Made by a program: the position numbers and the translations under genes
Shown here: positions 32,130 to 37,318 of the stretch, in pieces
Layout: every line of letters starts with the position of its first letter
How positions within the stretch are numbered: position 1 is the stretch's first letter
Source of the DNA: Thermococcus sp. 2319x1
Lineage (GTDB): Archaea; Methanobacteriota_B; Thermococci; Thermococcales; Thermococcaceae
DNA: 64,000 nucleotides
Assembly: GCF_001484685.1 (NCBI RefSeq)
Contig: NZ_CP012200.1
Location: 614,321 to 678,320 of the forward strand
Reading direction: 5' to 3'
The notes under the pieces: generated by a model
Databases searched by the model: none
What the model was told of the DNA's origin: nothing
Seen by the model: the letters and a program-made list of their open reading frames with translations, nothing else

Positions 32130-32813
32130 TCATCTTTCCATTCTTTTAACGCCATCCTTAGTGCCAACAAGAACGATATCCGCTATATCAGCAAAGATGC
32201 CGTTTTCGACAACTCCCGGGATGTTGTTCAGCTCAATCTCCATGTCAAGAGGATCTTCTATCCTTTCGAATTTTGCATCGAGGATAAAGTTCCCGTTGTC
32301 AGTTATCACAGGCCCGTCTTTTTTAACGCCCATCCTAAGCTCAGCCTTTGCATTGAAGACTTCAAGCTCTTCTTTTATAGCCCTCCATGCTGCAGGGATG
32401 ACTTCTATGGGGACTGGCATTTTCTGGCCAAGGTATTCCACGAGCTTGCTCTCATCAACGAGCACTATAAACGTTCCAGCCCTGTACTCAATGATCTTTT
32501 CCATAGTTAATGCTGCACCCCTTCCCTTGATGAGATTGAGATGGGGATCAACTTCGTCTGCACCGTCAATTGCGATGTCAATTGCATCAACTTCATCAAG
32601 AGCCACAACGGGGACGCCGTTCTCAAGGGCCAAGAGGCGGGACTGATGAGAGGTGGGAATGCCATAAACATCTTCAAGTTCCCCAGTCATAAGCATCTTT
32701 CCAAGCATTTGAATAAAATAAGCCGTTGTAGAGCCCGTGCCTAACCCGATTATCATATCATCGTCAATGAATTTCAGGGCCTCCTTAGCAACCATTCTTT
32801 TCATTTCTTCCAT
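32130..32813 (-). CDS. rpiA: ribose-5-phosphate isomerase A
   Basis: This 227-residue RpiA interconverts ribose-5-phosphate and ribulose-5-phosphate. Motifs in order are IIGLGTGSTTAYF (phosphate loop, near residue 21), IDIAIDGADEVDPHLNLIKG with the catalytic acidic pair (near 79-97), KGRGAALTMEKI and FILDAKFERIEDP. In Thermococcales it works with the ribulose monophosphate pathway to supply ribose. ATG 32813 lies three bases after the stop of the upstream membrane protein gene, so they are co-transcribed. Confidence 0.95.
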   Translation of the reverse strand: MEEMKRMVAKEALKFIDDDMIIGLGTGSTTAYFIQMLGKMLMTGELEDVYGIPTSHQSRLLALENGVPVVALDEVDAIDIAIDGADEVDPHLNLIKGRGAALTMEKIIEYRAGTFIVLVDESKLVEYLGQKMPVPIEVIPAAWRAIKEELEVFNAKAELRMGVKKDGPVITDNGNFILDAKFERIEDPLDMEIELNNIPGVVENGIFADIADIVLVGTKDGVKRMER

Positions 32814-32816
32814 CCT

Positions 32817-33140
32817 TCATCCCTTCGTTATGTTGTAGAGGAGAGACTGATTTGAGTAAAATTTCGGTTCAGGCTGCAGGATGAGGTTATAGCTAAAAAT
32901 CGTGAAGTACAGCCAGAACAGAAAGAATCCCCAAAAGCCCTTTCTAAGCAGAATTCTCTCATCTTTTAGCTCATCTGGAAGATCCTTAACAAGAGCGATG
33001 ACCACCTTTGGTGAGAGCAGATAAATCAGCAAACCCGCGATGTAACCCATTTGAGCCTGAGTTGAGAGGATTCCACTCACTATCCCTGCTATTGTTCCAA
33101 TTGCGTAAAATATGAGCGACATCTTGTTTTCAGCATTCAC
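32817..33140 (-). CDS. small membrane protein (possibly EMC6-like)
   Basis: This 107-residue protein has three hydrophobic segments: LIFYAIGTIAGIVSGILS, YIAGLLIYLLSPKVVIALV and GFFLFWLYFTIFSYNLIL, with a conserved LPDELKDERILLRKGFW loop before the last. The topology and size resemble archaeal EMC6-type insertase partners, a weak suggestion only. The start is GTG 33140 with AGGTGAT five bases upstream. It is the first gene of the pair with rpiA. Confidence 0.65.
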   Translation of the reverse strand: MNAENKMSLIFYAIGTIAGIVSGILSTQAQMGYIAGLLIYLLSPKVVIALVKDLPDELKDERILLRKGFWGFFLFWLYFTIFSYNLILQPEPKFYSNQSLLYNITKG

Positions 33141-33189: not shown

Positions 33190-34521
33190 TTACTCCTCAA
33201 AGTTCTCGAGCAGTCGCTCCCCTTTTTCAGTGAGCTTGTAGTAAACCCTTCTTCCCCTCTTGTACGCCTCTCCTATTAATCCAAGAGCCTCAAGTTCTTT
33301 TATGTGCTGATAAACTGCTTGATACTTCATTGGCTTTTCGAGGTTCTCCCAGATTTCATAGCCATACATGGGCTTCTCTCTTAGGAGCTTTAAAATTTCC
33401 AGCTTTGTCCCGCCAATTGAAAAACGCTCCCTCTCCTCTACATGGTAGCTCTTTAATCCCGAACCCGTAACTATCAAAGCTACTTTGTCCCCTTTTTCAA
33501 AATATCCACTTTCGTGGAGCTTTACCAAAGCCGGAATAACAACGGCCGAAGAATACTCAGCAAAGACACCCTCCTTAGCAAGAGCCCTTTCCCCAAAATC
33601 AAGCTCATCTTCCCTTACAACCACGGCCGTTCCATTGCTTTCTCTGACAGCTTTTATTGCAAGTTCCTTGTTTATTGGGTCTTTGACATATAACCCGAGG
33701 GCTTTGGTAAACTCCCTTCTGCTTTCTATCCCCAATATCTCAGCCGCTATTGGAGAGCAGTTTTCAGTTTGCACTGCAATTAGTTTGGGGAGCTCTTCAA
33801 TAGCGCCAATTTCTAAAAGTTCCCTAAAACCCTTGTAGATGCTATAGATGTTGCTTCCACTTCCCGTTGGTACGATTACATGGGTTGGGTTTATCTCTTC
33901 CCATAGCTCAAAAGCGAGGGTTTTCTGTCCTTCAAGCCCGATTACATTGTTTTCGGGGGTTATGTCATAGAGACCGTTTAACCGGGAGAGTTCTCTAGCA
34001 TATTCTATACACTCATCCACGCTCTCTCCATAGCGAATTATCTTAGCCCCAAAAGCTATCATCTGAATGAGTTTCCCTTTATCAACCTTCTTTGGCACGA
34101 CAACAAAGGCCTCTTTATTGGCCCTAGCGGCGTAAGCTGCTAAGGAAGCTGCTGCATTGCCATCGCTGGCAACTATGAATCCATTGCCGGCATATGGCAG
34201 ACCATATGAAACTCCTACCGTAGCAAGCCGATCCCTAAATGAGCCTGTTGGATTCCTCGTCTCGTCTTTAATAAAAACATCTATTCCAAGCTCTTCACCG
34301 AGTTTTGCTTTAACTAAAGGTGTTCCGCCTTCTTTTAGGGAAATTATTTTAGGCACACCGGGAAGTAGCTCTTTGTACCTCCATACTCCCCTCTCTCTGT
34401 TTTTCCATCTTTTGACATCCACTTTAGAATAATCATATGACACCTCAAGGAAAGCACCACATGAACATTTTGGGGGTATTATCTGTTTATACTCCCTTCC
34501 ACAGTTGGGGCACTTTATCAT
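33190..34521 (-). CDS. threonine-synthase-like PLP-fold protein with C-terminal winged helix, PLP lysine replaced by Arg
   Basis: The N-terminus has a two-CxxC-like zinc motif (CPNCG, CSCG). The fold-type II PLP domain shows LKEGGTPLVKAKLG, IKDETRNPTGSFRDRLA and the phosphate loop VPTGSGSNIYSIYKG, all typical of threonine synthase. The Schiff-base lysine normally in GSFKDR is arginine here (residue 96 from this start), read clearly as AGG. Residues 370-443 form a PadR/wHTH-type domain (MYGYEIWENLEKPMKYQAVYQHIKELEALGL). The protein may be a PLP-independent regulator or sensor rather than an enzyme. ATG 34521 is picked with GGTGGG five bases upstream; ATG 34524 and GTG 34527 are alternatives. 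Confidence 0.8.
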   Translation of the reverse strand: MIKCPNCGREYKQIIPPKCSCGAFLEVSYDYSKVDVKRWKNRERGVWRYKELLPGVPKIISLKEGGTPLVKAKLGEELGIDVFIKDETRNPTGSFRDRLATVGVSYGLPYAGNGFIVASDGNAAASLAAYAARANKEAFVVVPKKVDKGKLIQMIAFGAKIIRYGESVDECIEYARELSRLNGLYDITPENNVIGLEGQKTLAFELWEEINPTHVIVPTGSGSNIYSIYKGFRELLEIGAIEELPKLIAVQTENCSPIAAEILGIESRREFTKALGLYVKDPINKELAIKAVRESNGTAVVVREDELDFGERALAKEGVFAEYSSAVVIPALVKLHESGYFEKGDKVALIVTGSGLKSYHVEERERFSIGGTKLEILKLLREKPMYGYEIWENLEKPMKYQAVYQHIKELEALGLIGEAYKRGRRVYYKLTEKGERLLENFEE

Positions 34522-34545
34522 CATCACCCACCAAAAAATTAAAAA

Positions 34546-36492
34546 TCACTTGAGCCTGATGGCGTCAAGATTGTTGGGAGCCCTTGTAGAAATACCAAAC
34601 TTCTTGTGGATACTTGAGGCAAGATCAAGGCACTTCTGAGGCTCTCCGTGAACTGTTATTACCCTTTCTGGTCTCGGCTTTACCCTTGCCACATAGCTCA
34701 TTAACTCCCTTCTATCGGCGTGACCTGAAAATCCGTCTATCGTGTGAATTTCCATGTTTACTTGGATAACTTCCGTCTTTCCACCTTCACCGACTGTTGG
34801 TATCTCCCTTAGACCTCTTTGAACCTGTCTTCCCAAAGTCCCTTCTGCCTGGTAGCTTACGAATATCAGCGAGTTTCTAGGATCTGGAGCAAGATGCTTA
34901 AAGTACTCCACACTAGGCCCACCAACCAGCATACCGGAGGAGGCCACGATTATTGCGGGTTCTTCACTCTCTATTATGTCCTTCCTTTCGTTTGCATTTG
35001 CCACTGGTTTGAATATCTCATTTAAGAACGGATTATAGCCTTCGTGGAATATCTGATTCCTGAGGCCCTTGCTTAAATATTCAGGATATGCTGTATGGAT
35101 TGCCGTCGCCTCCCATATCATGCCATCCAAGTATATTGGAACGTCCAAGCCTCCTACCCTCACGTAATCTTCAAGGGCTATCATTATCTCCTGAGCCCTT
35201 CCAACGGCCATTGCAGGGATAAGAACCTTTCCTTTGCGCTTGATCGTCTGAAGGATGACCTCAATAAGCCGCTTCTCAGCTTCTTCTCTCGGCATCTGGT
35301 AATCTTTGCTTCCTCCATAAGTTGATTCCATTATTAGAGTCTCAAGTCTTGGGAATTTTGCATTTGCTGGCTCAAAGAGCTTTGTGGGAATGAACTTGAA
35401 GTCCCCAGTCACGGCTATGTTGTGGAGACCGTTTCCAACGTGAAGGTGGACTATTGAAGAGCCCAGAATGTGGCCCGCATTGTGCAGGGTAAGTCTCAAA
35501 TCTGGCGAGATGTCCCTGACTTCTCCATAATCAAGGGTTATTGTGTGCTTAACGACCTCTTTTATGTCTCTCATTCTGTAAAGGGGATCAATACCGTTGC
35601 TCTGCTGTATTTCAATGAAGTCCTTTTGAAGAAGAACCATTAAATCTCTTGTAGGCGGAGTTGCATAAATAGGGCCATCAAATAAGTTGTACCTGAAGAG
35701 GTAAGGCAACAGTCCAGAGTGGTCAAGGTGTGCGTGGGTAACTATTATTGCATCCAAGAGGCCTTCTTTAAGAACGTAAGTAAATTCTGGAGCATCAAAG
35801 TGCGGAAATCCCTTCTTGGGGTCATTCAACGCCGCAACGTTTACACCAAAGTCAACCAGCACAAAACTCTCATTTGTTTGGAGCAAGAGGGCACTTCTTC
35901 CAACTTCCCTGAATCCTCCAAGTCCCGTTATCCTTATCCAGTCACTCTTAAGTTCTGGCTTTCTGTAGATGTTTCTCCCAACCTGTCTCAGGAATTTTCT
36001 CCTATCTTTACTCTCAGACTGCAAAATCCCCCTAATAGAGTATATGGTCTGGGACTGCAAAGGAGGTGTTCTAACGACTTTTGGCGCCCAGTAAACTTTT
36101 TGGGTTATCTCTCTAAGCGTCTCCCCGTTCTTTCCAATCACAAGTCCGGGCTTTTTAGCCTCAATTATTACCTCACCAACAGAAGGATCGAAACTTATAT
36201 TCGTTATTTCCGCCTCTGGCGGAACTATCTGCTTAATTAACTCCTCGGCCTTTTCAGGAGGAAGAAGAACATCCGGATCCGGCCTCACACTAATCCTCTT
36301 TTTGAGAACCTTTGCAAGGTTTTTTATAAGATCTCCATCCTGCATTACGACTTCAGGGTTTTTTACGTAGATAACCAGCTCCGGTCCCTCAAATTCAACT
36401 TCTGTTATCTTTGCCTCCTTAGGCACCATCTGGTTAATAATCTCCCTGATTTCCTTTAGAACTTCATCAACGTTTGTTTCTCTTTTTATCAC
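34546..36492 (-). CDS. fttA: transcription termination factor FttA / aCPSF1 (KH, MBL, beta-CASP)
   Basis: This 648-residue archaeal CPSF1 has two N-terminal KH-type domains (the second with GLVIGKNGETLREI near residue 130), then a metallo-beta-lactamase domain with the HxHxDH motif THAHLDHSG and a beta-CASP region with a C-terminal HGEPQKC. The protein cleaves RNA and terminates transcription genome-wide. GTG 36492 is chosen since GGGGTGA lies five bases upstream and the resulting length equals that of orthologues; the longer TTG-started frame would overlap the psmB stop. It is downstream of psmB, probably the same transcript. Confidence 0.93.
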   Translation of the reverse strand: MIKRETNVDEVLKEIREIINQMVPKEAKITEVEFEGPELVIYVKNPEVVMQDGDLIKNLAKVLKKRISVRPDPDVLLPPEKAEELIKQIVPPEAEITNISFDPSVGEVIIEAKKPGLVIGKNGETLREITQKVYWAPKVVRTPPLQSQTIYSIRGILQSESKDRRKFLRQVGRNIYRKPELKSDWIRITGLGGFREVGRSALLLQTNESFVLVDFGVNVAALNDPKKGFPHFDAPEFTYVLKEGLLDAIIVTHAHLDHSGLLPYLFRYNLFDGPIYATPPTRDLMVLLQKDFIEIQQSNGIDPLYRMRDIKEVVKHTITLDYGEVRDISPDLRLTLHNAGHILGSSIVHLHVGNGLHNIAVTGDFKFIPTKLFEPANAKFPRLETLIMESTYGGSKDYQMPREEAEKRLIEVILQTIKRKGKVLIPAMAVGRAQEIMIALEDYVRVGGLDVPIYLDGMIWEATAIHTAYPEYLSKGLRNQIFHEGYNPFLNEIFKPVANANERKDIIESEEPAIIVASSGMLVGGPSVEYFKHLAPDPRNSLIFVSYQAEGTLGRQVQRGLREIPTVGEGGKTEVIQVNMEIHTIDGFSGHADRRELMSYVARVKPRPERVITVHGEPQKCLDLASSIHKKFGISTRAPNNLDAIRLK

Positions 36493-36509
36493 ACCAATCA
36501 CCCCTAGAA

Positions 36510-37124
36510 TCAAAGCTTCTTAATGATCTTCTCGACTTCTTCTTTAGAAAGCTCGCTATAACCTTCTTTTGTAATAACAACAACCATTATACCATCTCCA
36601 GTAAAGACGTCCCTTTTTATTGCGGTGTTTATAGCCTTTATGGCCAATTTAACGCCTTTTTTAACATTCATCTTTTCATCGTATTCGTTATCCAAAACAG
36701 AGTAAGCAAACTCCATACCAGAACCTGCAGAAACATATTTATCTTCAGTAATTCCTCCAGCCATATCAATCGAATAAAGACCCGGCTTCTCGTCGTAACC
36801 TCCTACTAAAAACCAGCCGAAGTAGGGGAAGTACCGTCTTCCATTTAAGATGTTAGAAGTCAGCGTTGCCAATGCCTTTGTGCTCATCTCTCTGCCAACT
36901 CTCGCTCTGTAAAGCTTTGCTTCTGCCCTCAAAAGCCTTACAAGGCTCAGTATGTCTCCTACACTTCCAGCTCCTGCTAGAGCTAAATGGTCGTCTATTT
37001 GGAATATCTTGCTAACTCCCTTGGATAGGATCATGTTGCCCAGTGAAGCCCTCATGTCCGCAGCTAATACCACCCCATCATTACAAACAATGCCTACTGT
37101 TGTTGTCCCTTTAATTTTGTCCAA
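36510..37124 (-). CDS. psmB: proteasome beta subunit
   Basis: The sequence [20 protein letters not shown] shows the maturation site: cleavage before the first Thr of TTTVG creates the catalytic N-terminus. [18 protein letters not shown] and [14 protein letters not shown] are beta-subunit signatures (catalytic Lys region, SGSG loop). The product forms the inner rings of the 20S core. A TATA element CTTTAAATAC on the minus strand near 37200 puts the transcript start near 37175, which excludes the longer frame. TTG 37124 (GGGGTG six bases upstream) gives a six-residue propeptide and 204 residues in all; GTG 37133 is the alternative. Confidence 0.92.
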
Positions 37125-37318
37125 AGCCAACACCCCTTTAGGATAGTCATTTTGCTTGAGAATAGAAACAAATGTTACAGTGGGGGTTTGACCGAGGGAG
37201 TATTTAAAGTTTTCGCAAAGCAACATGAGTTGCTCCTTTCAGATGGGCAGCTAAAGGAAAAAGCTTTTTATTCTATGAATTGTTTTACAGTAGTGTAACC
37301 ATTGGGAGGTATGATAAA

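What the first reader, a model, noticed from the sequence alone, without database searches (positions are those of the whole stretch)
33190..34521. Threonine-synthase fold with Arg for the PLP lysine, fused to a winged helix
The PLP Schiff-base Lys lies in GSFKDR in known threonine synthases; here it is clearly GSFRDR (AGG). The rest of the cofactor site is kept and a PadR-like DNA-binding domain is fused at the C-terminus. This suggests an enzyme-derived metabolite sensor/transcription factor.
Basis: partly seen in the sequence, partly recalled or inferred. Interest (0 to 1): 0.65.

Follow-up and report, generated by a model that had tools for sequence, protein, structure and literature searches.

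The report
Dead threonine-synthase-like archaeal DNA-binding sensor
A heat-loving archaeon and its relatives carry a protein that databases call threonine synthase, but it has lost the lysine that does the chemistry and the residues that hold the substrate, and it carries a DNA-binding tail, so it is probably a gene switch built from a dead enzyme.

Summary
The gene (33190-34527, minus strand; likely start ATG 34521) has an N-terminal zinc ribbon, a threonine-synthase-like domain with GSFRDR (Arg98, AGG) at the PLP-lysine site, and a C-terminal PadR-like winged helix. It is not a one-off. Orthologues occur in 67 of 94 Thermococcales genomes and in 4 genomes of another family of the class (about 47% identical). 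Arg stands in 65 of 66 aligned fused proteins, written with all six Arg codons. Only two genomes of one genus have Lys, nested in the tree, so probably a reversion. Residues around PLP are kept (Asn87, Thr317, Lys116 equivalents; phosphate loop), but Asn154, Ser155, Arg160, Thr85 and Thr88, invariant in seven canonical threonine synthases, are all replaced. No new lysine appears in the enzyme domain. The recognition helix is invariant and the tail folds like PadR regulators. Twenty-nine near-complete genomes keep the protein but have neither thrB nor canonical thrC. NCBIfam NF004170 names the whole fused family 'threonine synthase', very probably a misannotation. Best reading: a non-catalytic, threonine-synthase-derived ligand-sensing transcription factor, working like bacterial MocR regulators but built from a different PLP fold. 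Ligand, targets and PLP binding are not shown.

The parts
33190..34527 (-). whole gene: ThrC-like/PadR fusion, NCBIfam NF004170 (PRK05638.1); GTG 34527 as listed, ATG 34521 more likely
34456..34512 (-). zinc-ribbon cysteines C6, C9, C21, C23
   Evidence: conserved in 63-64 of 65 fused proteins
33463..34344 (-). PALP (fold type II, threonine-synthase-like) domain, residues 62-355
   Evidence: Pfam 5.3e-70; Foldseek best hits are threonine synthases with PLP
34234..34236 (-). codon AGG = Arg98, aligned with PLP-Lys61 of T. thermophilus ThrC
33850..33870 (-). PLP-phosphate loop PTGSGSN (residues 220-226; PVGNAGN in ThrC)
   Evidence: alignment
33418..33456 (-). flexible linker, residues 358-370 (pLDDT < 50)
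   Evidence: AlphaFold2 model
33205..33411 (-). PadR-like winged helix, residues 373-441
   Evidence: Pfam; model pLDDT 91 and Foldseek hits to PadR regulators
33286..33324 (-). recognition helix, residues 402-414 (YQAVYQHIKELEA); Q403, A404, Q407, H408 invariant
34546..36513 (-). upstream neighbour: KH/metallo-beta-lactamase RNase aCPSF1 (FttA-like), same strand, 18 bp away
   Evidence: order conserved in most Thermococcus and Pyrococcus genomes looked at; name from general knowledge
36510..37226 (-). proteasome beta subunit upstream in the same gene string
   Evidence: name from general knowledge
32130..33140 (-). downstream neighbours: small membrane protein and ribose-5-phosphate isomerase (rpiA)
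   Evidence: names from general knowledge

Best explanation
The protein is a non-catalytic transcription regulator that evolved from a threonine synthase. The enzyme domain keeps the PLP pocket but cannot form the lysine Schiff base or hold O-phosphohomoserine, so it would act as a sensor. Its ligand may be PLP held non-covalently, a PLP-amino-acid aldimine that cannot go further, or an amino acid or its phosphate. Ligand-driven closure of the domain is passed through a flexible linker to the PadR-type winged helix, which binds a conserved operator as a dimer. Shown: architecture, loss of the lysine and of other ThrC-invariant residues, a single ancient origin of the Arg on the tree, purifying selection, an invariant recognition helix, and persistence without thrB/thrC. 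Inferred: ligand binding, DNA binding, allostery and target genes. My estimates within this reading: ligand is PLP or a PLP adduct 0.4, amino acid alone 0.35, other 0.25.
For: Arg98 in 65 of 66 aligned proteins, all six Arg codons, dN/dS about 0.03-0.05. Same in a second family of the class. Tree: Arg arose at the base of the fused family; Lys in genus g2 is nested. K61, T85, T88, N154, S155, R160 invariant in 7 canonical ThrCs but replaced here; N87, K116, T317 and the phosphate-loop Gly kept. All invariant lysines of the enzyme domain are shared with canonical ThrC. Winged helix: Pfam PadR in 5 proteins tested, Foldseek to PadR regulators including the operator-bound B. subtilis PadR, more conserved than the enzyme domain between the two families (56-57% against 48-49%). 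29 near-complete genomes keep it without thrB and canonical thrC.
Against: No binding or expression data. Two genomes carry Lys (one shown to have the same winged helix, the other cut off by its contig), so Arg is not strictly required and an active form may exist. No operator motif specific to carriers was found upstream of the one operon examined. Gene neighbourhood gives no metabolic partner. Residue roles in ThrC are from memory of the T. thermophilus structures, not from a paper read here.
Confidence: 0.72

Rival explanations
1. It is still an enzyme: PLP or another substrate is used without the usual lysine, with Arg or a different base, and the winged helix only regulates the gene or the enzyme (a trigger enzyme).
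For: PLP-pocket residues N124, T354, K152 and the phosphate loop are kept; strong purifying selection on the enzyme domain; Lys returned in genus g2.
Against: No invariant lysine of the enzyme domain is new relative to canonical ThrC; substrate-phosphate residues are lost; no metabolic operon partner.
Confidence: 0.12
2. It is a genuine threonine synthase, as NCBIfam names it, with Arg tolerated.
For: NF004170 equivalog 'threonine synthase', 800 bits against a cut-off of 421; canonical thrC is deleted in this genome.
Against: Schiff-base Lys and N154, S155, R160 replaced; 29 near-complete genomes have it without thrB or canonical thrC; a Lys-bearing ThrC-like paralogue above the TIGR00260 cut-off is present here (L002).
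Confidence: 0.04
3. The winged helix does not bind a specific DNA site but serves in protein or RNA contacts, e.g. with a Lys-bearing paralogue or with products of the aCPSF1 gene string.
For: Conserved position behind aCPSF1 in most Thermococcus and Pyrococcus genomes examined; winged helices can bind proteins (general knowledge).
Against: Recognition helix invariant across both families; best fold matches are PadR regulators; the neighbourhood changes in genus g2 and in family f2 while the protein stays.
Confidence: 0.1

Closest known systems
Threonine synthase ThrC (e.g. PDB 1uim/1v7c, 6cgq/6nmx, 2d1f, 2zsj)
   Same: fold, zinc-ribbon plus PALP layout as in archaeal ThrC, PLP ring and phosphate contacts
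   Different: Lys61 is Arg; T85, T88, N154, S155, R160 replaced; extra C-terminal winged helix
NCBIfam NF004170 / PRK05638.1 'threonine synthase'
   Same: same full-length family including the winged helix (442 of 442 positions)
   Different: the name is not supported by the sequence
MocR/GabR/PdxR regulators (bacterial)
   Same: PLP-enzyme-derived sensor joined to a winged helix
   Different: those use a fold type I aminotransferase domain and an N-terminal GntR helix and keep the lysine (general knowledge); reported absent from Archaea (PMC5320631)
PadR-family regulators (5dym, 5x11, 3elk)
   Same: winged-helix fold and sequence profile
   Different: stand-alone proteins with their own dimer helices; here a tail on an enzyme-like domain

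Membership tests
Threonine synthase (EC 4.2.3.1) | PLP Schiff-base lysine (K61 in 1uim) | tested here: not met
   Arg98; R in 65 of 66 members
Threonine synthase (EC 4.2.3.1) | substrate-phosphate residues N154, S155, R160 | tested here: not met
   T190, E192, G197; roles recalled, invariance in 7 ThrCs tested
Threonine synthase (EC 4.2.3.1) | fold type II PALP domain with PLP ring contacts N87, T317 | tested here: met
Threonine synthase (EC 4.2.3.1) | catalytic activity | not testable with these tools
   needs enzyme assay
PadR-type transcription regulators | PadR winged-helix domain | tested here: met
   Pfam PF03551 above cut-off; Foldseek
PadR-type transcription regulators | operator binding and regulation | not testable with these tools
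   one operon promoter inspected, no carrier-specific motif
MocR regulators | N-terminal GntR helix plus fold type I aminotransferase domain | tested here: not met
   C-terminal PadR helix plus fold type II domain
NCBIfam NF004170 (PRK05638.1) | score above the 421-bit cut-off over the full length | tested here: met
   800 bits, 1-442

The most novel reading that the evidence does not exclude
An archaeal counterpart of MocR built from a type II PLP fold: the Arg pocket holds PLP non-covalently and traps a PLP-amino-acid aldimine that cannot be released by a lysine, and this dead-end complex is the signal read by the winged helix.
Probability: 0.25. Interest if true: 0.78.

Novelty: new variant of a known kind. 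Interest (0 to 1): 0.57.

Why it matters
PLP-fold transcription factors are known in Bacteria (MocR) and were reported absent from Archaea; no fold type II case was found in the papers searched. If right, this is an ancient lineage-wide archaeal regulator born from an inactivated enzyme, with a natural Lys-reverted branch for comparison. It also means that dozens of genomes are annotated with a threonine synthase that they do not have, which would distort predictions of amino acid requirements in Thermococcales.

Tried and rejected
Threonine-operon regulation: the lysC/met-thr operon promoters share AAAAATATGTCGAAAATTATATAAA-like sequence, but it occurs in genomes with and without the protein and looks like the core promoter or another regulator's site. 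PLP-synthesis regulation: at least 10 near-complete genomes with the protein lack pdxS and the association is not significant. Link to threonine synthesis by co-occurrence: canonical thrC is enriched among carriers (20/52 against 2/23, p 0.012, not corrected for kinship), but most carriers lack it. Sequencing error or pseudogene: rejected by codon turnover at Arg98, dN/dS and conservation. Operon partners: differ between clades. Literature: searches on threonine synthase with winged helix, helix-turn-helix, fold type II regulators, misannotation, and on presumed locus tags recalled from memory found no study of this family.

Full report
What is there. The gene at 33190-34527 (-) encodes 445 residues from GTG 34527; the ATG at 34521 fits the family profile start better. 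It has a four-cysteine zinc ribbon, a PALP domain (62-355) and a PadR-like winged helix (378-441). The PLP-lysine motif reads GSFRDR; the codon is AGG at 34234-34236.

Is the Arg real and general? In the order, 67 of 94 genomes hold an orthologue, counting partial genes on contig ends. All have GSFRDR where the stretch is covered, except G002 and G003, two genomes of genus g2, which have GSFKDR. Four genomes of another family in the class, about 47% identical, have the same fusion and GSFRDR. On a tree built without the Arg column, the fused family is one group beside Lys-bearing paralogues, Arg is at its base, and the Lys member G002 sits inside next to an Arg sister, G001. The simplest reading is one Lys-to-Arg change long ago and one reversion; the tree is a quick one with some long outgroup branches. 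The codon at the site includes all six Arg codons, so Arg itself is under selection.

Is it a threonine synthase? Against seven canonical ThrCs (four with solved structures), K61, G53, T85, T88, N154, S155 and R160 are invariant there and replaced here, while N87, K116, T317 and the phosphate-loop glycine stay. From memory of the T. thermophilus structures, N154, S155 and R160 are among the residues that hold the substrate phosphate. All lysines that are invariant in this enzyme domain are also present in canonical ThrC, so no new lysine compensates. The protein is kept by 29 near-complete genomes that have neither thrB nor canonical thrC. NCBIfam nevertheless calls the whole fused family 'threonine synthase'.

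Is it a DNA-binding protein? The tail models well (pLDDT 91) and its best fold matches are PadR regulators, including one solved on its operator. Recognition-helix residues Q403, A404, Q407 and H408 are invariant in every member, and the tail is more conserved than the enzyme domain between the two families. The enzyme domain and tail are joined by a floppy linker. Fold search of the whole model gives PLP-bound threonine synthases.

Context. In this window, and in most of the Thermococcus and Pyrococcus genomes looked at, the gene follows proteasome beta and aCPSF1 genes; in genus g2 it overlaps a spermidine synthase gene by 4 bp or lies just behind it; in the other family it is divergent from GINS and MCM genes (gene names here are from general knowledge of the sequences). 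So there is no fixed metabolic partner. In this genome the canonical thrC of the met/lysC-thrB-asd operon has lost its middle, from the lysine motif onward. Other ThrC-like genes with Lys remain: L002, which passes the thrC cut-off, and L003 and L004.

Mechanism. Best reading: a sensor-regulator made from a dead enzyme. Enzyme-derived regulators of this style exist in Bacteria (MocR), but use another fold and helix and were reported missing from Archaea. What is bound and what is regulated remain open.

Noticed in passing
L162:8109-8429 (own genome C1:691108-691428, outside the window): Canonical thrC between thrB and asd is internally deleted: about 90 N-terminal residues ending NNLTGCF run in frame into the last 18 or so residues.
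   Followed up: yes
L162:6712-7215: Second aspartate-kinase subunit (AspKin_pair) is also truncated; only about 73 residues match the model.
   Followed up: partly
L177, L178, L179, L180: Met-type operons in other genomes carry lysC and thrB without thrC (three of the four also with asd), suggesting phosphohomoserine is used for methionine there.
   Followed up: partly
upstream of lysC/met operons in L162-L165, L176-L178, L180, L181: Conserved AAAAATATGTCGAAAATTATATAAA-like promoter sequence, in genomes with and without the protein; GTCGAAA may be BRE or a regulator site.
   Followed up: partly
G001, G031, G075, G076, G079, G080, G084, G086, G087, G092: Near-complete genomes lacking pdxS, so probably vitamin B6 auxotrophs.
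   Followed up: no
L129:5239-6574 (G078): The orthologue has several single-base gaps, some in short homopolymers, probably sequencing errors rather than a pseudogene.
   Followed up: yes
L121:4467-5804: In genus g2 the gene overlaps spermidine synthase by 4 bp behind polyamine genes.
   Followed up: partly
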